Assembly (NCBI GenBank): GCA_027596075.1
Contig: JADGJC010000212.1
Location: 1 to 64,000 of the forward strand
Length of the DNA stretch: 64,000 nucleotides
From: Rhizophlyctis rosea
Taxonomy: Eukaryota; Chytridiomycota; Chytridiomycetes; Rhizophlyctidales; Rhizophlyctidaceae
Direction of reading: 5' to 3'
This document shows, one piece after another, positions 9,294 to 57,717 of this stretch. Each line of letters opens with the position of its first letter. Position 1 is the stretch's first letter. A program made the position numbers and the translations under genes. Below the pieces are notes generated by a model that was given only the letters and a program-made list of their open reading frames with translations, was not told the DNA's origin and ran no database searches.

Positions 9294-11118
9294 ATGCCCA
9301 CAGCAACTAATAATCCGGTGAAGGAATGGAAGAAGGTATGTGTAGCGGAGTTCTTAACGCCGGGATCCGTCACGTTCCGCTCACATACAATTCTTCAACA
9401 AATCCAATTTCAATCTTTCAAAATCAACTAGATCGGCATCATAGGCGCCGGAAGCATGGGCAGCAACATGCCCATGCTCTTCGCCGAAGCCGGTCTCCTC
9501 GTCTCCATATTCGACATCTCCCCCTCAAACATTGACACACTCCTCCAAAACACCGCCCGCATCCCAGCCATAAAGGACAATATCTCCGGTTACAAAGACT
9601 ACCAGTCCTTCCTATCCAGTTTAACTGACGACTCCCAGCACTCAAAACTCATCGTCCTCTCCATCTCGCACGGTAAACCCACGGACGAAGTCCTGAAAGC
9701 TATCGGCGGGTCGTTGAAGGAGGGAGATATTATCTTAGATGGGGGAAACGAATTCTACGAAGCTACAGAACGAAGACAAAAAGATCTCAAGCAGAAGGGA
9801 GTGGATTTCTTAGCCGTCGGTGTTTCGGGGGGCTATCAGTCTGCACGGCACGGGCCTTCGTTTAGTCCTAGTGGGGATAGTTTGGCACTCAAACGTGTCA
9901 TGCCGCTTTTGGAGAAGGTCGCGGCTAAGGCACCTGACGGCACACCGTGTGTTAGGAATATTGGAAAGGGACCCGCCGGTCATTTTGTGAAGATGGTGCA
10001 TAATGGGATTGAGCAGGGGATGATGGCGGTGTTGTGTGAGGTTTGGGGGATTATGGAGCGGAGTTTGGGGATGGGGTTGGAGGAGATCGGTGGAATTTTT
10101 AGGGAGTGGAATGAGGAGGGGCCGTTGGTATGTTTTTTGTTTACTTCTTTATCACATCCTTCTGTCTATCAACACTGCAACACTGCAACACTCTCCACGC
10201 AGCACAACTGCTTCCTAATCTCCATCGCAATCACAAACGTCACACTCAAACCAAACTCCCACTCCCCACCCCTCCTCACAAACATCCAAGACAAAGTCGT
10301 CCAAGACGCCGACTCCTCCGAAGGAACGGGATACTGGACCGTCCGCGAAGCCGCTATGAGACATGTCAGTGCGCCTACCATAGCTGCAGCTCATTTTCTT
10401 CGTATTGCGTCTGCGGATCGGGCGGAGAGGGAGGAGAGTGCGAGGTTGTTGGGTTCGATTGGTAAACCGGAAAGGCGAACCCTCACAACGGAAGAGAAAT
10501 CGAACTTTATCCATACCCTCCGCCAAGCAACATACCACGCCTTCCTCTCCTCTTTCGTCCAAGGCTTGAACCTCATCGCGCGAGCGAACGTGCAGAATCA
10601 GTGGGGCGTCGACTTGGTGGATTGTATCCAGATTTGGAGGGGAGGATGTATCATCGAATGTCAAGGCATATTGGATTTGTTTACAAAGGTCGTAAAGGCA
10701 CATCCGGACATGACGAATCTTCTCCTGGATGAAACCGTTGCGCGGGAGTTACGGGAAACGGTTGGGGATTTGAAAAACGTTGTTGGGAAGGCGGTGGAGT
10801 GGGATGCGAATGTGTAGGTGTTGGTTTGTTTACCGCTATAACCCGTTCGCGTTTCCTGTTCCGCTGACACATTGGTACAGTCCCGCACTATCCGCCTCGC
10901 TCGAATACATCAAATACTGCGCGAGCGTCGACCTCCCTACCCAGTTCATGGAAGCTCAATTGGATTATTTTGGTGCGCATAACTTTGATTTGAAGAGTGA
11001 GGGGGCTGGGGAGGTCAAGAAAGGTGGGTTGATTAGAAATTCGCATCGAGGTGTGCGCGTGTTGATTGTTTTTTTGCACCTGATAGGGAAATATCATCAT
11101 GAATGGCAACCAGCGTGA
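9294..11118 (+). CDS. GND1: 6-phosphogluconate dehydrogenase, decarboxylating
   Basis: This oxidises 6-phosphogluconate to ribulose 5-phosphate with release of CO2 and NADPH in the cytosolic oxidative pentose phosphate pathway. Five exons (9294-9335, 9432-10127, 10203-10813, 10881-11023, 11087-11118) give 507 residues, near the family's 470-500. The N-terminal Rossmann fold carries GIIGAGSMGSN (after residue 14). The signature ILDGGNEFY, then GVSGGYQSARHGPSFSPSG and HFVKMVHNGIEQGMM (substrate-binding His/Lys/Asn), lie in order. The C-terminal helical domain has GTGYWT and IWRGGCIIE. The tail EAQLDYFGAHNFD...EVKKG-KYHHEWQP matches the conserved family end. The intron at 10128-10202 is 75 bases and has no in-frame stop, so retention would keep the frame; the family alignment shows it is spliced. 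Variants from the usual GYW-type and SGGE segments (here GVSGGYQSA) suggest a somewhat diverged copy. Confidence 0.93.
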
Positions 11119-35605: not shown

Positions 35606-37805
35606 CTACGCACCGCTGCTCCTACCCTTCCCTGCCCTCCGCTTTCCATCAACGGGAATGATAGACTCCCAAACCACCTGCCGACCCTTCTTGCCACTCC
35701 TCCGCTCCCGCCCCAAAACAATACTGTCAAAAATCACATCTCCCATGTCGATGCTACTAATAGTGCTAAGCGCACGTTCCCTCCTGTCACACTTGGTATT
35801 GTCGGAGATCTCAGTACGACTGTTACGCCTGCCACCGTGATGGCGATCATCTTCACCTGGTTCATACGCGTTACCTGTTGCCTTACCAATTTCTGCCGTC
35901 GTCGTTGTCGTCTCCGATGGATGTAATGTCAAGCCCACTAAGCCTTCAGATGACCCGGCATTCGTCGTATCCACGTCTGGGATTGTGTGCTCCGATACAA
36001 CCTCCACACCCACCCCAACTTCCGTCTTCACATCCCCAACCCCATCATCCCACCACCCCACATCCTCATCCGGCGACACAAACCCCTCCTCCCCCTCTTC
36101 CTCCCCCTCCTTTCCATCTGCCACCTCACCCCCTCCGCCAACCCCATACGCAACCCCAACAAACCCAACCCACTTCTCAATAACCCTCCTCATTTCCTCC
36201 CACCCCCCCTTCTCCCCACCATCACCACCACCCCCACAACAAAACAACTCATAATGCGCCTCCCGACACCCCTTCCAACATACAACAGGTCCAGCTCCAT
36301 ACCGTTCCCCCAATTCTATATGTATCAACCGTTCCGCGCGGTGAGTGTACGGACATCGTTTCGGTGGTGGTGGAGTATGGGCGAAGGGGTAAGGTGAGGT
36401 AGGGGGAGGGGAAGGTGTTGGGAAGAGGTCTAGGAGGTGGGGTGTGTAATTGCATTGGGTGGACCATTGGGTTAGGCGGCGGTAGACTGGGGGGTGTTTT
36501 GTGGGTTGGAGTGTGGAAGATGTGAGTGGATGGATCAAGAGGAGGACAAAGGAAGGAGAATGATGGTGCATATCTTACCATTTGTCGCGCGTCCGATTTT
36601 GTAGAATTTTGTTGGCGGAGTGTGGTTAGATGTGGGTGGTAGATGCGAGAAGTCTTTTGCTGTCATTGAAAATCAAGGAGAAACAATGGCGTAAGGTTGT
36701 AAATGACGAACAATCAACTGTCTATGTCAACTTCACTATCAAATACTTCCTTCAATTAAATCCATACCCTGCAACTCATACGCATAGATGAATCCAGCCT
36801 CCTCGGACGCGCTCAAAGGTTTCGCTATTTCGGTTCTGAGGCGATGTTGGGTTGTGAAGGAGAGGGTTTTGTCGATGTAGCCTGCGAAATGTGTCAGTGT
36901 CGCACTCACATGGCATTCAACCTCAAAGACGGAGCAGTTGCAATGAACACTGTACTTTCGAGATCAAGATGCATGCTAAGTTGCGCGGGTGTTGATAGGG
37001 AGTCTTTTAGATGTTGGTGGCAGAGACGTTTTGCAGTCGGGGAGATGTGGTGTTTTCGTTTTAGGCGTCGGGTGCAGCGTTCGCCCGTTTGTTGGTTGAT
37101 CCCTTCGCATATGAGGATGGGGGTGTCGGGATGTTTCGGTTGTGTGGGCATCATCAGGGATGGTGTACAACCCCTTTCAATAGCTTTCTTCTGGTCCGCT
37201 CTAGTATCCCCATTCCTATGCGCCGTCCACTCCATTTTCCGTTCCACGCATCGCAACTCCATCTCATTAGCCATTTGCGCGCGTTGCCCAGTATCGGGGT
37301 CACTGGTTGCCGCCCACTCCATCCCACCATCACCTTCCACCTCATCAACATCACCGTCGCCATCCATAACCCCCTCATCAACGTCCCTACCGCCGCCCAA
37401 GTCCCTCGCCCCACCACCAGTACAACCACTATAACCACCACCACCTTTAACAAGACCACCACCACTAACAAGATCATCACCATCACAACTAACACGGCCA
37501 AAATCCCCAAGATCACTCCAATCCTCCCTACAATCCTCCCAAATCTCCGAAGAAGAGTCAGTACTGCCACTGCTAGGACTGCCGACAGTCTCAGCCCGAC
37601 TGAGAATACTACTTAGGGAAGAACTCCTCCTCCTATTCCAAGCCCAGCGCATATTGAATTTAGCGCGTTCACGGTGTTGGTAGCAGTAGGTTGAGTGTTT
37701 CTTTATGGGAGAAGGAGGCACTACGCGGCGACAGGGGAGACCGGTGTGGAGGGAGAGGCCGCGGCATATCGTGTGGGGTTTTGAGGGGGAGGAGGGTGGT
37801 GTCAT
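35606..37805 (-). CDS. GIY-YIG (T5orf172/MUG113-like) protein with paired Cys/His motifs
   Basis: The start is ATG 37805. Two zinc-finger-like motifs are visible: CRGLSLHTGLPCRR...YCYQH near residue 15 and CEGINQQTGERCTRR...LCHQH near residue 240, separated by an acidic Gly/Ser-rich linker. A donor at about 36951 (GTACAG) joins phase 1 to the exon with YIDKTLSFTT and the GIY motif equivalent GFIYAYEL. A further exon carries KFYKIGRATN (YIG equivalent), joined to VYRRLTQWSTQC and LLDLFP. HRAERLIHIEL holds the catalytic-type Glu of the domain. The C-terminal part is acidic and disordered, then basic. In fungi this family (S. pombe Mug113) is expressed in meiosis; the domain is related to homing nucleases, and nuclease activity is plausible but unproven. 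It is divergent from the checkpoint-mediator gene. Confidence 0.8.
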
Positions 37806-46615: not shown

Positions 46616-47008
46616 CTAAAGCTGGTTAGTGCAGCACTTGTAATTCGAGCCACCCATCGGGCAGTATCCTAGTTCACATAAAAGCACAATTAGCTCAGTC
46701 TCGTTGCTATCCAACTCCCTTCTCGTAATGGTCCACAAACCTGACACGAATTTCCCCCCCGGGCACCCATCGCTAGTGAACTTGCAGATACCATCACCCT
46801 TGGGTCCGCAGAAGTTGCGCAAGCAGCATTTGATGTTGTTGCCATCGTAGGGGCAGGCGTCGTTGACGTACCAGGTGTAGGTTCCTGTGCACTTGGATTT
46901 GTCGGCGCAAACACCGTCGGTTACATCCACACAACGGCCGCCAACACTGGCGGATGCGGAAGCGGTGAAGAGGAGGAGAGTGGCGACGATGGTGTTGATT
47001 GGGGCCAT
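46616..47008 (-). CDS. Small secreted cysteine-rich protein with two tandem CC-motif repeats
   Basis: Exons 47008-46741 and 46668-46616 join in phase 1 (GTTTGTGG/AACTAG) to give 106 residues. The signal peptide is MAPINTIVATLLLFTASASA. The mature part has about twelve Cys in two repeats: CVDVTDGVCADKSKC...ACPYDGNNIKCC and FC...ICKFTSDGCPGGKFVSG-YCPMGGSNYKCC. Each repeat ends G(N/S)N(I/Y)KCC after CP. This C-x-GG-x-FVSG-x-CP-x-KCC pattern accompanies secreted peptidoglycan- or wall-active enzymes in many fungi, but here it stands alone. Likely an extracellular defence or wall-binding peptide; function unproven. Confidence 0.8.
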   Translation of the reverse strand: MAPINTIVATLLLFTASASASVGGRCVDVTDGVCADKSKCTGTYTWYVNDACPYDGNNIKCCLRNFCGPKGDGICKFTSDGCPGGKFVSGLWTITRRELDSNETELIVLLCELGYCPMGGSNYKCCTNQL

Positions 47009-47999
47009 TTTTTGGTGGATGTTGTGATGGTCAGTAACTGAATGAAAGGACTGGATGCAATTTAATGAGACGAAAACGGTGCGCTCAAATGCGCGCACGA
47101 TCCTGAACCCTGTCCCTCCTCCATCATTCCATGTGGAGATTCTGCTCAAGAAGGAGGAACGCTGTTGGAGACCGGCTTTCAGGAGTCCACTCACTCACAA
47201 TGGGTGGAACCTCACCAAATGACTTCCTGCAGACTGAGCAGTCGGCGACGCCAGGGTCTTGTCACCTCGCTGTGTTCAACGCGTCGCTTTCGCCACACAT
47301 AATAGGTTGGGTAAATGTCGGGAAAAGGGTGCAGGCGTTTCACATTTCTCAACAACTTCCCTTCCACGGTTTGAGCCGCCACCGATACGGACTATATAAC
47401 CGAGGCAAACATGGAATCATGGTCAAAAGGATGGATTCATGCTAGAAATTGTTTGAATTGCCTCTTGGCAGTCATTCTGAGGCGCCGAGCAGAGCCTTGC
47501 CCGCTGTGGGTATTGTACGTCAAAATGTTCAGTTGGAGGCCATTGCTACACGTCCTTCCTTCCCCGAACGAGATTGCATAATCTAATGAGAGCATCATGC
47601 ACAGACGTTCAGATAATCATCTCGGAAAAACTAACGCGCTGAAGCCAGAATGTCCCTTTCCCCCATTCCTAACTGCCTTGTTGTGCTAAGTGTGCTACGA
47701 ATTGAAGATTTTGCCTTGACTGACCCTCGTTCATGTATTCTGGGCTATTGATTTCCCTTGCAGCCGACGAGAAGCATTGAGACCTCATCCAGTATACTCA
47801 GCATCCTCCCGACTATGAAGCGACTTCATCAACATAATGACACTTTTAATCCCGTTGAAATGCTGGTCATTTTGGATTCATCTTCCCCTGGCAAGATCAA
47901 TCTATTTCAAAGTCGCCTGAAGGCGGAGTTGATTGTGACATGCTTTCAATGGAAGTCGAACGTCTGAAATGGGTGCATGAACATGAATTTTTGGAGTGG
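47009..47999. other. Intergenic, no gene seen
   Basis: The upstream region of the cysteine-rich protein. A TATATAA sequence at 47394-47400 is too far from any recognised start to be assigned. Confidence 0.45.
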
Positions 48000-48715: not shown

Positions 48716-49143
48716 TTTACTAGCCCCTATAAAGGGGGCAGGACGATTCCGACAGAGCGCAAAATCTCCAAAACTCTGTCTTTAAACTAGTGTCTCTATG
48801 CGGGCAGCCTTCGGTACTTTGTCATGACATTCAAAGTGGCTTATGACCCCGCTTTGGGGTATGGTTGCAATTTGCACTTTGACACCTGTTCGAGCTGCTT
48901 CCCAAATGGCGCTTACTTCACGAGTATATGAAAGCCGGTACAGCCACCAATGAGCATCCAAACAAGGACCCTGAGATCTTATCGACTATCGAGTCACTAA
49001 GCCACAGAAGGCGCAAAGGCTTCCAACGCGTCATGATTGCGCCAAGATCGTTTCCAACAAGTTCCACAGTTTCTCACATTGGCTTCACCTTCTTCGTAGC
49101 TGCCCTCTTCCAACCGCACCTCCCTCCACTTTGCAAAAGAAGA
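48716..49143. other. Upstream region of the carrier gene
   Basis: GCCCCTATAAAGGGGG is a TATA-like site inside a GC palindrome at 48723-48739. An in-frame open stretch from 48928 precedes the carrier start but is not conserved in the family. Confidence 0.4.
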
Positions 49144-50315
49144 ATGTCCAACCCAGACTTACCGCCGCAGCTGTTCACACTTTCTACCGCACAAATCAAT
49201 GTGATTGCCACTGTAGCGTCTGGATTGGCCACATTTGTAGCTTTCTACCCTCTTGAGGTGATAGAGCTACGACTGCAAACACAAGGTGCTTCTAGCGCTG
49301 CTGGATCAACAAAAAGTGGGCGGATTTATAACGGCATGGTGGACGCTTTGCGTCGTCTACCACGGGAAGAAGGGGTTAGGTAAGATTTTGTAAAAGTCGA
49401 TGTGCGTTTGACAAGCTGATCCAAAAGATTTCATGTTCATACATCAGAGCGTTATACCGCGGTTTTGCACCTGCATTCTTGCAAGCCACTGTTGGATGGG
49501 CCTTCTACTACTGTCTTTTTGACTTATCCCGCCACATCATCAATGCACAACTTCTCTCAGGACCCGTCACACACGAGCACGAAACACACCAAGGCCCCGC
49601 TTTACACGACCATCACCTTCCACACACTCCTAAAGACGCAGTGAACCTCGTCAAAGACGTCACCGCCGAGTCTGTCCCACCCAAATGCGAACCAACGGAG
49701 ATCCCTCCACTAGCAAATCTGGGTGGGGCTGCAGTTGCTGGTGCTTTGGCAACACTAGCGTTCAATCCCCTACAAGTCGTCAAATTGCGCATGGTAACCG
49801 CCCCTAGAGGGTCGGCAGGGTTCTTCTCAACCATCAACCGTATCCTACGTGAGCCAGCATCGAAAGTAGCGCAAGCCTCAATGTCGCGAAACCCAATCCT
49901 ATCACGCTACCCCGGCTTTCCCACCCTATACCGCGGCCTTCTCCCAGCTCTCTTTGGTGTCTCAGAAGGATGTGTGCAATTCACCGCCTACGAACGTCTG
50001 AAACCAGTTCTCATCACATCAGGCCCCATGGTGGCTGGTCTGATGCTAGCATCATGCTCGGCACGGCTGATGGCTGGACTGGCTACATATCCCTATCAGT
50101 ATGTACGATCACGCTTGCAGAATGATACCGGGCGGTATAGTGGGGTGGCAGATGTAGTAAAGGAGACGGTGCGATCGCAGGGAGGAGTTAGGGCTTTGTG
50201 GACTGGGTTGGCACCGAATTTGATTAGGACGGTACCTCCGGCGGGGATATTGCTTACCTTGAATGATTCACTGCGGGAGTTTTTGCACCGGAAGTTTGGG
50301 CATAAGAAAATTTAG
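49144..50315 (+). CDS. Mitochondrial carrier, FAD/folate type (FLX1/SLC25A32-like)
   Basis: Two exons (49144-49379, 49448-50315) give 367 residues, with three carrier repeats of two helices each. The signature motifs are YPLEVIELRLQ (repeat 1), NPLQVVKLRM (repeat 2, Gln in place of the usual acidic residue) and YPYQYVRSRLQ (repeat 3). The PYQ(V/Y)VRxR form of the third motif is characteristic of the FLX1/SLC25A32 group, which moves FAD or folate across the inner mitochondrial membrane. A loop of about 60 His/Pro-rich residues separates repeats 1 and 2, longer than usual. The start MSNPDL is chosen because it lies just before the first helix; upstream in-frame codons would add a non-conserved extension. 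Other pyrimidine-nucleotide or peroxisomal carriers share part of this pattern. Confidence 0.83.
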
Positions 50316-53464: not shown

Positions 53465-54502
53465 ATGAAGCCCGGAAAGTTCGTTTCCAGAATGATCTCA
53501 TCCAGATCACCAAAGCCCCCGCCTTCTGGCGTAGCTAAGGATCAAAGCCGAACCGTGCAGTTGGTTGTCATCGACGGCGACCCTTCGCTCGAGCACAACT
53601 GGGCCGCCTACTTTGAAGGGTGCGCCCTCGTCGACGGAACTGCCGTCCGCGTTGCCCAATGCAGCTGGCTCGAAATGGAATGTTCCGTATTCGACGACAA
53701 CGACTGTCTCCTGACCATCACACCACACGCTCGTCCAGGGCTGCCAAATCCATCCCCCGCATATACCATCCATCCAGACTTCCTCCTCATCCGCAACCAA
53801 GTCCGCGGCACACGTCCCGAATCGGACAAACGCAACGTTCTCTACGGCCTGATGCATGCCAACATCCCCTCCATCAACTCTCTGGAATCAGTCTACATGC
53901 ATCTGGAAAGACCCCTCATGTTCGATGCCTTAAAAGACATCCAAAACCGTCTGGGCTCCCAAAAGTTCCCACTGATCCCGCAATCCTACTACTCCTCCGA
54001 CCTCCTAATGGTAACGGCAGACTGCCCCACAGTCATCAAAATCTCCCACGCGCATCGCGGAATGGGGAAGATCCTCGCAACCACCTACGACGCCTTCCGC
54101 GACATCACCACCGCGCTTGCACTCCATAACGACTATGCCACGACGGAGAATTACGTAGATTCAGAGTATGGGCTTCGAGTGCAGAAACTGGGGTCAAAGT
54201 ACCGGGTGTATAAGAAGATGTTCACGGGCTCCGGGTGGAAATCCCATTTCGGGGGTGCGGATTTGGAGGAGATACCTGTTATTGATGAGTATAGGCTGTG
54301 GGTAGATGAATGTGCGAAATGCTTTGGGGGGATGGATTTGTTGTCGGTTGATGCGTTGCGTGGAAAGGATGGGAAGGATTATATTATTGAGATGAATGGG
54401 ACTGCGACGGGGTTGCATCCTTCGTGTGTTAGGGAGGATTCGCTGGTTATTCGGGATCTTGTGTTAGAGAGGATGAACAGGCTCTTTGTCTGTCAAGACT
54501 AG
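53465..54502 (+). CDS. Synapsin-like ATP-grasp protein
   Basis: A single exon of 345 residues. From residue 27 it matches the synapsin C domain throughout. LVVIDGDPSLEHNWAAYFEG corresponds to the synapsin VIDDPHTDWAKYF region. FLLIRNQVRG, GLMHANIPSINSLESVY and KFPLIPQSYY come next. IKISHAHRGMGKIL is the ATP-binding glycine loop, GHAHAGMGK in animals. YATTENYVDSEYGLRVQKLG and YRLWVDECAKCFGGMDLLSV lead to KDGKDYIIEMNGTATGL, with acidic residues for metal binding. The start MKPGKF is the first in-frame ATG; the N-terminal 25 residues are basic and serine-rich. The phospho-regulated A domain and the proline-rich D/E tails of animal synapsins are absent. In animals synapsin tethers synaptic vesicles; here a vesicle-clustering or ATP-dependent ligase role is inference. 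Confidence 0.92.
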   Translation: MKPGKFVSRMISSRSPKPPPSGVAKDQSRTVQLVVIDGDPSLEHNWAAYFEGCALVDGTAVRVAQCSWLEMECSVFDDNDCLLTITPHARPGLPNPSPAYTIHPDFLLIRNQVRGTRPESDKRNVLYGLMHANIPSINSLESVYMHLERPLMFDALKDIQNRLGSQKFPLIPQSYYSSDLLMVTADCPTVIKISHAHRGMGKILATTYDAFRDITTALALHNDYATTENYVDSEYGLRVQKLGSKYRVYKKMFTGSGWKSHFGGADLEEIPVIDEYRLWVDECAKCFGGMDLLSVDALRGKDGKDYIIEMNGTATGLHPSCVREDSLVIRDLVLERMNRLFVCQD

Positions 54503-55685: not shown

Positions 55686-56313
55686 ATAGTTTTCCTTTTA
55701 AGTATGTCAACGTGCTGGTGTCCGGTATTGCTGAAGCGGACTTTCCAGGACGCTTTGGCGTTTATGGCTCTAAGTAGTGACTAAACGATGTCGGACGGTC
55801 CCCAAGGTTTGAGTACTGACTTCTACCTCATACCTATTCGCATTGTTGTCGGCAGATGTTGGGGTGAGAAAGTGCCCACTCTCCTCTTGGTGAGCCATAC
55901 TTATACCAGCCACTAGGTGCCGAGGTGACTGCATGGGCAAATGAAGTGGGCACCACCAAGAAGGCAGGAACGTGCATCTGCAAGTCACGGTCCACGGACC
56001 AGGCTACGAGGGCCAAACAACAAAGTTCACTGCCCTGAGGCGCTGCACCTGTGTTACAACGCCGTAACACATTCCCCCATATGCAGCCGCTCAATAACAT
56101 CATCCATTCACAACGTTTCTGGCCCTTTCCACTTTCCCACAATCGTATTACACAGCAATTCTCCAATCTGCCGAGACGCACTCCCAACCCACCACTAACT
56201 TGTGATATCAGGTACGTCCTGCGCCTGAAGATCACCAACAATTACTTGTTTACTCTTTTTGTTGTTTGCTGATCTACAATCGACTTTCGTGTTTCCATTC
56301 CCACAGCTGCAAA
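55686..56313. other. Divergent intergenic region
   Basis: Shared upstream region of the DUF1992 and GDP-mannose pyrophosphorylase genes. A possible 5' UTR intron acceptor (CCCACAG, 56301-56306) lies just before the start of the latter. Confidence 0.5.
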
Positions 56314-57717
56314 ATGCCGCACCTCAAAGGTGTTATTCTCGTCGGAGGACCGTCTGTCGGCACGCGATTCCGTCCGCTGTCCATGGATGTACCGAAACCC
56401 CTCTTCCCTATCGCCGGCGTTCCCATGGTCCACCACCACGTCTCCGCTCTCGCCAAAATCAAGGATATGAAGGAAATCATCATTCTCGGGTTCTTCGAGC
56501 AAGGAGTGTTGGACAGGTTCTTGTTGGAGGTTCAAATTGAGTTTTCTCACATCAACATCAGGTATGGGGGCCGTGGGAAATGATCTACTGCTGGCTTCGT
56601 TGCAGTGTGGGAACATGTGGTACACAAAGGTCTGGTGGAACCCGTGGGCTGACGCCCTTCCCCTTACAGATACTTGCGTGAATACCAGGCTTTGGGCACA
56701 GGTGGTGGATTGTACCACTTCCGTGATGAAATCTTGAGGGGCAACCCAGACCAGGTCTTCGTACTCAACGCCGATATCGCATCGTCCTTCCCACTCGAAG
56801 CTATGCTTGCTTTCCACCGCCAGAAGAAAGCCGTCGGTACCTTGCTCAGCATCCGCATCGACCGCGCGCAAGTACAAAAGTACGGTTGCGTCGTTGCCAA
56901 CCCTGACACGCAAGAAGTGTTGCACTTCGTTGAAAAGCCTGAAACTTTCATTTCTGACCTGATCTCCTGCGGAGTTTACCTCTTCAACCCCAAAATCTTC
57001 ACTGTTTTCATGAAGGATGCCATTGCCAAGCGCCATGCAAAGGCTGTCGAAGCTGGAGAGGAAGAGGAGGCTTCCCGCACCAACAACTCTGAGAAGGTCG
57101 CCTTGGAATCGGACGTTCTCAGCTTGCTCACTGCCGACAAGAAGCTCTACGCATACGTCTGCCGCCCCGACAGGGACTTCTGGATGCAGATGAAAACCGG
57201 AAGCTCCGCCATCCCCGCCAACCGTCTCTACCTCCAATGGTTCATCAAGAACGCTCCCCGCCGTCTTTCCACCGCTCCCCGCGCATCCGACATTGTTGAA
57301 AGCCCAACCGACGAAGGTACCGCCGAAGTCATCCAACCCGCCTACATCCATCCCACCGCCGTCATCCACCCCTCCGCGAAGCTCGGTCCCAACGTCTCCA
57401 TTGGCCCCCGTGTCGTCATCGGCCGCGGCGTCCGTGTCCGCGACTCCATCATCCTCGACAATGTGGAGATCAAGAACGACTCTTGTATCTTGAATGCAGT
57501 GGTTGGGTGGGATTCCAAGATTGGGTGCTGGTCGCGTGTTGAGGGTGCACCTGGGGAGTCAAGTCATCACAATGCGACTGTGAAGGGGCAGAAGATTCCT
57601 AGTGCGGCTATTTTGGGCAAGGCGGTGACTGTGGCGGATGAGATTGCGGTTCGTAACTGCATTGTTTTGCCGCACAAGGAGCTTAAGAGCAGTCAGCATA
57701 ATGAAATCGTAATGTAA
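56314..57717 (+). CDS. Mannose-1-phosphate guanylyltransferase alpha subunit (GMPPA-like)
   Basis: Exons 56314-56561 and 56670-57717 join as AG|A (Arg) to give 431 residues, the family's usual length. The nucleotidyltransferase domain opens with GVILVGGPSVGTRFRPLSMDVPKPLFPIAG, with GTRFRPL and the PKPL lysine. It continues with EYQALGTGGGLYHFRDEI, VFVLNADIASSFPL (NADI, metal Asp) and VVANPDTQEVLHFVEKPETF. The C-terminal left-handed beta-helix has hexapeptide-like repeats (IHPTAVIHPSAKLGPNVSIGP, GRGVRVRDSIILDNVEIK). The closing segment AVRNCIVLPHKELKSSQHNEIVM matches the GMPPA end. GMPPA proteins are the regulatory, GDP-mannose-sensing partner of the catalytic GMPPB in protein mannosylation and wall synthesis; the G-x-S-x-GTRFRPL form supports the alpha type. 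Confidence 0.92.

What the first reader, a model, noticed from the sequence alone, without database searches (positions are those of the whole stretch)
53465..54502. A synapsin in a fungus
The 345-residue protein matches the synapsin C domain from end to end (VIDGDP..W..YF, AHRGMGK, YATTE.Y.DSEY..R.QK.G, YRLWVD, KDGKDYIIE) but lacks the animal regulatory domains. Synapsins are studied almost only in animals. A single-domain version in a zoosporic fungus bears on the ancestral, pre-synaptic function of the family.
Basis: partly seen in the sequence, partly recalled or inferred. Interest (0 to 1): 0.75.

Follow-up and report, generated by a model that had tools for sequence, protein, structure and literature searches.

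The report
Synapsin-core protein in a chytrid fungus
A soil chytrid fungus carries one short gene for the core of synapsin, a protein best known from nerve endings; its closest relatives found here are amoeba-like protist proteins rather than animal ones, and it keeps an enzyme-type metal site that animal synapsins have altered, which suggests that the family began as an enzyme before nerves existed.

Summary

The interpretation needs correcting. Single-C-domain synapsins were reported from Naegleria and Entamoeba in 2010 (PMC2825198). The fungal protein groups with amoebozoan, heteroloboseid and apusomonad-labelled sequences; a fungus + animals clade is rejected. No other named fungus is among the listed hits. 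Horizontal gain versus retention is unresolved.

Most interesting: 99 of 99 scorable non-animal rows keep the ATP-grasp metal triad Asp-Glu-Asn; 0 of 55 animal or animal-like rows do. Their Asp is Glu or Lys, and nearly all vertebrate rows have also lost the Asn. I propose that non-animal synapsins are working RimK-like ATP-grasp ligases and animal synapsins are modified descendants. This is inferred, not shown (about 50%).

The parts
53465..54502 (+). Synapsin C-domain protein ORF, 345 codons plus TAG stop, no intron needed
53465..53548 (+). N-terminal segment, residues 1-28, low model confidence; alternative start at Met10 used by the database prediction P0002
53549..54493 (+). Synapsin C domain, residues 29-343 (ATP-grasp fold)
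54038..54070 (+). Lys192 and the HAHRGMGK loop (residues 192-202), conserved ATP-site segment
54350..54352 (+). Asp296, first residue of the metal triad (aligned with rat synapsin I Glu373)
54389..54397 (+). Glu309 and Asn311, second and third residues of the metal triad (aligned with rat synapsin I Glu386 and the Val two residues on)

Best explanation
The gene encodes a genuine, complete synapsin C domain, without the animal N-terminal domain or any extension after domain C, in the genome of the chytrid Rhizophlyctis rosea (identity about 0.97). It belongs to a protist-type branch of the family with amoebozoan, heteroloboseid and apusomonad-labelled proteins, not to the animal branch (about 0.85). 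Shown by computation: family, fold, single copy, conserved ATP-site Lys and Glu residues, and an intact Asp-Glu-Asn metal triad. Inferred: it binds Mg-ATP between the ATP-grasp lobes and, because the whole triad is kept in every scorable non-animal row, it is a working ATP-dependent carboxylate-amine ligase of RimK-like kind, forming an acyl-phosphate and joining it to an amine of an unknown cytosolic substrate (about 0.5). In animals the Asp became Glu or Lys, and nearly all vertebrate rows have lost the Asn as well, while ATP binding was kept and used for oligomerisation and vesicle clustering (inferred; the animal role is from the literature). Some protist relatives end in a membrane anchor; the fungal protein does not.
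For: Family and fold. Host and native context: 94% match of a same-contig gene to R. rosea HDV00_004274, even GC, third-base use like six neighbouring ORFs. Branch: clades A and B separated at 100* in a 94-row tree and 100/99 in a 56-row tree; AU test rejects R. rosea + animals, p 3e-113. Triad: Asp-Glu-Asn in 99 of 99 scorable non-animal rows against 0 of 55 animal or animal-like rows, 5 of 159 rows without data; the same three residues align with Asp, Glu, Asn of a RimK-type ligase. Lys192, Lys202 and Glu228 are conserved on both sides. RimK-like ligases are the nearest enzymes by sequence and by fold.
Against: No activity is shown for this protein, and I know of none for any synapsin (recalled). 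The triad may be kept for Mg-ATP binding alone. Glu at the first triad position is used by some active ATP-grasp enzymes (recalled), so the Asp to Glu change need not mean loss; three animal-branch rows (octocoral, a near-identical unnamed row, bivalve) read Glu-Glu-Asn. Position 149, where animals have Lys (54 of 55), is Arg in 87 of the 89 non-animal rows with data; the usual ATP-grasp residue there is Lys (recalled), which speaks somewhat against canonical ATP handling. AU tests do not reject R. rosea lying outside the other clade A rows (p 0.2 and 0.08).
Confidence: 0.5

Rival explanations
1. Non-catalytic ATP-sensing scaffold: as in animal synapsin, the fungal C domain binds divalent metal-ATP only to switch its oligomeric state and cluster membranes or vesicles, for example in zoospores.
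Against: The fungal protein has no tail, anchor or disordered C-terminal region; the complete enzyme-type triad in 99 of 99 scorable non-animal rows is more than binding seems to need.
Confidence: 0.35
2. Origin by horizontal transfer: R. rosea acquired the gene from an amoebozoan-like protist.
For: Groups inside the protist clade with P0004 (98/85) and P0012 (95/83); AU rejects grouping with the apusomonad-labelled sequence (p 0.009) or with animals; intronless while neighbours look split; no other named fungus among the listed hits.
Against: The organisms behind P0004 and P0012 are not named and could be opisthokonts; a position outside the other clade A rows is not rejected (p 0.2 and 0.08); base use matches the neighbours, so any transfer is not recent; the 255 unlisted hits were not seen.
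Confidence: 0.5
3. Origin by vertical retention: the gene was in the ancestor of fungi and survives in R. rosea after repeated loss elsewhere; clades A and B could be ancient paralogues.
For: An apusomonad-labelled sequence lies in clade A; the family is present in Discoba, Amoebozoa and animals, hence old; native base use.
Against: Requires many losses in fungi; AU rejects the groupings with the apusomonad-labelled sequence that I tried (p 0.009 and 6e-4).
Confidence: 0.4
4. Contamination: the contig, or part of it, comes from an animal or an amoeba in the culture.
For: The relatives are mostly protists, and R. rosea is the only named fungus among listed hits.
Against: The same contig carries a 6PGD whose named hits among the 120 listed are fungi except one rotifer, Adineta steineri; GC is 0.49-0.56 along the window in 4 kb steps; the ORF shares GC3 and third-base shifts with neighbours; an animal source is rejected by the tree tests.
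Confidence: 0.02

Closest known systems
Animal synapsin I/II/III C domain (PDB 1pk8, 1i7l, 2p0a)
   Different: No PF10581 N-terminal domain and no regions after domain C; metal triad Asp-Glu-Asn instead of Glu-Glu-Val (rat and bovine I) or Lys-Glu-Met (II, III); Arg149 instead of Lys; different branch of the tree
Protist single-C-domain synapsins (Pelomyxa, Acrasis, Willaertia, Arcella, Balamuthia; Naegleria and Entamoeba as reported in PMC2825198)
   Same: Single synapsin C domain, Asp-Glu-Asn triad, same clade A where placed in the trees (Naegleria and Entamoeba sequences were not in my set)
   Different: Host is a fungus; some protist members have C-terminal extensions, transmembrane ends or CaaX-like ends
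RimK-type alpha-L-glutamate ligases (PDB 7qys, 7qyr, 4iwx)
   Different: 14-16% identity in the structural alignments; below the Pfam RimK cut-off and far below the NCBIfam RimK cut-off

Membership tests
Synapsin (C-domain family, PF02750 + PF02078) | Matches both Pfam synapsin models above the curated cut-offs | tested here: met
   190.3 bits vs 22.5 and 46 bits vs 23
Synapsin (C-domain family, PF02750 + PF02078) | Fold closer to synapsin C domains than to other ATP-grasp proteins | tested here: met
Synapsin (C-domain family, PF02750 + PF02078) | ATP binding and ATP-dependent oligomerisation | not testable with these tools
   Only residue conservation was seen
Animal-type synapsin | N-terminal domain A (PF10581) and regions after domain C | tested here: not met
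   PF10581 not found; the protein ends with domain C
Animal-type synapsin | Lies in the animal clade | tested here: not met
   AU test of R. rosea + six animal rows, p 3e-113
Animal-type synapsin | Association with secretory or synaptic vesicles | not testable with these tools
   Needs localisation in cells
RimK family | Score above the curated family cut-off | tested here: not met
   Pfam RimK 17.4 bits vs 21; NCBIfam 30S ribosomal protein S6--L-glutamate ligase 14.2 vs 331
ATP-grasp enzyme (works like one) | Complete metal triad Asp/Glu, Glu, Asn | tested here: met
   Asp296, Glu309, Asn311 align with the RimK-type ligase 7qys
ATP-grasp enzyme (works like one) | Ligase activity with a defined substrate | not testable with these tools
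   Needs an enzyme assay

The most novel reading that the evidence does not exclude
Synapsin is an ancient eukaryotic enzyme. Non-animal members, this fungal one included, are active ATP-grasp ligases, and animal synapsins are descendants whose metal triad was altered stepwise (Asp to Glu or Lys in the animals sampled, then Asn lost in vertebrates) while ATP binding was recruited for vesicle clustering. The R. rosea protein would be a compact test case for the pre-neuronal activity.
Probability: 0.4. Interest if true: 0.8.

Novelty: new member of a known kind. Interest (0 to 1): 0.52.

Why it matters
A 2021 survey of 13 species lists synapsin among vesicle proteins found only in animals, with three fungi in its sample (PMC7934909, passages read). 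This gene shows the core domain in a fungus, and the relatives found here span Amoebozoa, Heterolobosea, an apusomonad-labelled sequence and many unnamed sources. The clean split of the metal triad between non-animal and animal members gives a concrete and testable answer to why a synaptic scaffold protein has the fold of an ATP-using enzyme: it was probably one.

Tried and rejected
RimK or glutathione synthetase identity: rejected by Pfam, NCBIfam, PDB sequence and fold comparison. Animal contamination: rejected by contig and tree. Viral or prokaryotic source: scans of viral contigs (18 pattern matches, none a relative) and of one genome per prokaryote species (43 pattern matches, none a relative) found nothing; both rest on two short patterns each and can miss. 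Two weak RimK-family matches elsewhere in the own genome were not followed. A membrane or lipid anchor on the fungal protein: none seen. Naming the organisms behind P0003, P0004 and P0012: only assembler labels or nothing are given. A report of a fungal synapsin in print: not found by synapsin + fungi (267 papers, 30 listed, listing only), + choanoflagellate, + chytrid/Capsaspora/amoebozoa/protist terms (2,840 papers, 10 listed, none of the 10 holding the word synapsin), + ATP-grasp, + Naegleria, + Rhizophlyctis (none), + unicellular + origin of synapses, an enzyme-directed search (29 papers, 10 listed) and + amoebozoa. The library is open access only, so absence there is weak evidence. The AU groups holding P0004 and P0012 were named after the first tree was seen.

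Rows dropped: P0002 (the window's own protein again) from all counts; 46 rows, all named vertebrates or molluscs apart from none unnamed that I can see, from the 113-row alignment, all put back; 19 of 113 rows with under 80% of the domain from the tree; the 56 rows were chosen by me.

Full report
WHAT IS THERE. Window 53465-54502 (+) is one uninterrupted ORF of 345 codons from ATG to TAG. Pfam gives Synapsin_C (PF02750) 190.3 bits over residues 138-338 and Synapsin N-terminal (PF02078) 46 bits over 28-136, both far over their cut-offs; RimK reaches 17.4 bits, under its cut-off of 21. The best solved structures by sequence are synapsin-3, II, IA and I (E 8e-66 to 3e-62), then RimK-type ligases at E 0.005 and worse. 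The animal N-terminal model PF10581 is not found, and the protein ends with the C domain. Nothing else in the 44.1 Mb, 634-contig genome matches the protein or PF02750.

WHOSE GENOME. Of the 120 listed hits (of 7998), the named ones are fungi except one rotifer, Adineta steineri. NCBI taxonomy places R. rosea in Chytridiomycota, Rhizophlyctidales. A small-subunit rRNA check could not be run: nine requests did not complete. GC is 0.49-0.56 along the window in 4 kb steps. The synapsin ORF has GC3 0.64, inside the 0.52-0.67 of the six neighbouring ORFs compared, and shows the same kind of third-base shift from C/A to G/T. So the gene looks at home. It is intronless, while the mitochondrial carrier (48928-49383 and 49479-50315) and the nucleotidyl-transferase gene (56266-56583, read by eye, and 56674-57717) are split into separate ORFs, as introns would cause.

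RELATIVES. A search of 5.8 billion proteins gave 78 hits including the window's own protein. A profile search gave 375, of which the best 120 are listed; the 255 unlisted were not seen. Named non-animal hits: Pelomyxa schiedti 54%, Acrasis kona 47%, Arcella intermedia 48%, Willaertia magna 43%, Balamuthia mandrillaris 52% (in a record named as an asparaginyl-tRNA synthetase), a fragment with a Physarum-like label 61% over 39% of the query, an EukProt sequence labelled Amastigsp 40%, and a 3.3 kb contig labelled Thalassiosira exigua 37%. The best full-length animal hits are at about 39% over 88% of the query. No listed hit carries the name of another fungus. Scans of viral contigs and of prokaryote species genomes found no relative, so within the limits of those pattern scans the family is eukaryotic. 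That the Amastigsp label means the apusomonad Amastigomonas, and Phypoly means Physarum, is my reading of the labels.

TREE. A 94-row tree (rows with at least 80% of the domain, of 113 aligned; quick method) and a 56-row tree (rows chosen by me; careful method, bootstrap not settled) both split the family in two. Clade A holds Heterolobosea, Amoebozoa, the apusomonad-labelled sequence and R. rosea; clade B holds the animals and many unnamed rows (100*, 100/99). R. rosea joins EukProt P0004 (98/85) and, one step out, JGI P0012 (95/83). AU tests reject R. rosea + animals (p 3e-113), R. rosea + P0004 + P0012 + animals (6e-9), R. rosea + apusomonad-labelled (0.009) and R. rosea + P0004 + P0012 + apusomonad-labelled (6e-4). 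They do not reject R. rosea lying outside all other clade A rows (p 0.2 and 0.08 from two searches of that same split). So it is not a sister of animal synapsins, but its exact position in or next to clade A, and hence transfer versus retention, is open.

METAL TRIAD. In rat synapsin I, Ca2+ at the ATP site is held by the ATP phosphates, Glu373 and Glu386 (PMC9678998, passages read). In the alignments these columns, and the one two after Glu386, correspond to Asp296, Glu309 and Asn311 of the fungal protein and to Asp, Glu and Asn of the RimK-type ligase 7qys. Of all 159 rows examined (P0001, P0003-P0079, P0200-P0280, that is every listed hit except the duplicate of the window's own protein), 5 lack data and 99 read Asp-Glu-Asn. 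None of the 99 is a named animal, and none lies in the animal clade where placed. The other 55 are named animals, or unnamed rows that fall in that clade (P0051, P0237, P0251): Lys-Glu-Met 39, Lys-Glu-Val 8, Glu-Glu-Asn 3 (octocoral, a near-identical unnamed row, bivalve), and one each of Lys-Glu-Asn, Lys-Glu-Ile, Lys-Glu-Ala, Lys-Asp-Val and Glu-Glu-gap. Single odd cases may be alignment slips, since this alignment was automatic. Rat and bovine synapsin I read Glu-Glu-Val. Lys192, Lys202 and Glu228 are kept on both sides; position 149 differs, Arg in 87 of 89 non-animal rows with data and Lys in 54 of 55 others. That Asp/Glu, Glu and Asn are the usual metal ligands of ATP-grasp enzymes, and that Glu works at the first place in some, is recalled knowledge.

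HOW IT PROBABLY WORKS. The complete triad in every scorable non-animal row suggests selection for Mg-ATP chemistry rather than binding alone, and RimK-like ligases are the nearest enzymes by sequence and fold. I therefore propose a cytosolic ATP-dependent ligase of unknown substrate (about 50%). The main rival is an ATP-sensing oligomer like animal synapsin (about 35%). The Arg at position 149 and the lack of any measured activity stand against the enzyme reading. Of 99 non-animal rows that reach the domain end, 33 have a tail of 25 residues or more, 9 a C-terminal transmembrane segment and 2 a CaaX-like end, so some relatives are probably membrane-bound; the fungal one has no such tail.

WHAT WAS KNOWN. 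Candiani et al. 2010 (PMC2825198, passages read) reported single-C-domain synapsins in Naegleria gruberi and Entamoeba histolytica, none in Amphimedon, Trichoplax or Monosiga, and proposed that the C domain came first. Goehde et al. 2021 (PMC7934909, passages read) found synapsin only in animals among 13 species that included Batrachochytrium, Rhizopus, Saccharomyces and Capsaspora. A sponge study also lists it as absent from Amphimedon (PMC6823388, one passage). My searches (open-access library, listings capped) showed no report of a fungal synapsin or of the triad split in what I saw. This is a new member of a known kind; the triad split is what makes it more than a curiosity.

Noticed in passing
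whole window; also L005 and L006 (own genome): Strong short-range strand asymmetry: the A+C fraction in 100-base blocks has sd 0.132 in the window (0.098 in L005, 0.114 in L006) against about 0.05 in shuffles and 0.057 in 30 kb of E. coli, with lag-1 correlation 0.51 turning negative by lag 3; third codon positions shift between C/A-rich and G/T-rich within all seven ORFs sampled.
   Followed up: partly
P0014, P0020, P0034, P0040, P0056, P0071, P0076, P0211, P0230 (related proteins, not in the window): Nine non-animal synapsins end in a transmembrane segment, like tail-anchored proteins; P0017 and P0039 end in a CaaX-like motif.
   Followed up: partly
clade B protist-like rows such as P0219, P0228, P0212, P0239 (related proteins): Many start with a short hydrophobic or aromatic motif (MFSFLSS, MLKSLF, MQFVRETIGG, MLRSLFSS) at the place where animal synapsins have domain A; a possible pre-animal membrane-binding start.
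   Followed up: no
P0208 (related protein, 3.3 kb contig): A clade B synapsin in a record labelled as the diatom Thalassiosira exigua; could be contamination of that assembly or a real stramenopile gene.
   Followed up: no
window 9456-10817 (+): The 6-phosphogluconate dehydrogenase's best named hits after R. rosea itself are Pezizomycetes and Agaricomycetes at 45-50% identity; no other chytrid is seen among the 120 listed of 7998 hits.
   Followed up: no
window 46616-47194 (-): ORF with a signal-peptide-like stretch followed by two similar Cys-rich units; no Pfam match.
   Followed up: no
window 35606-36571 (-): ORF with a T5orf172 domain (E 8.5e-5).
   Followed up: no
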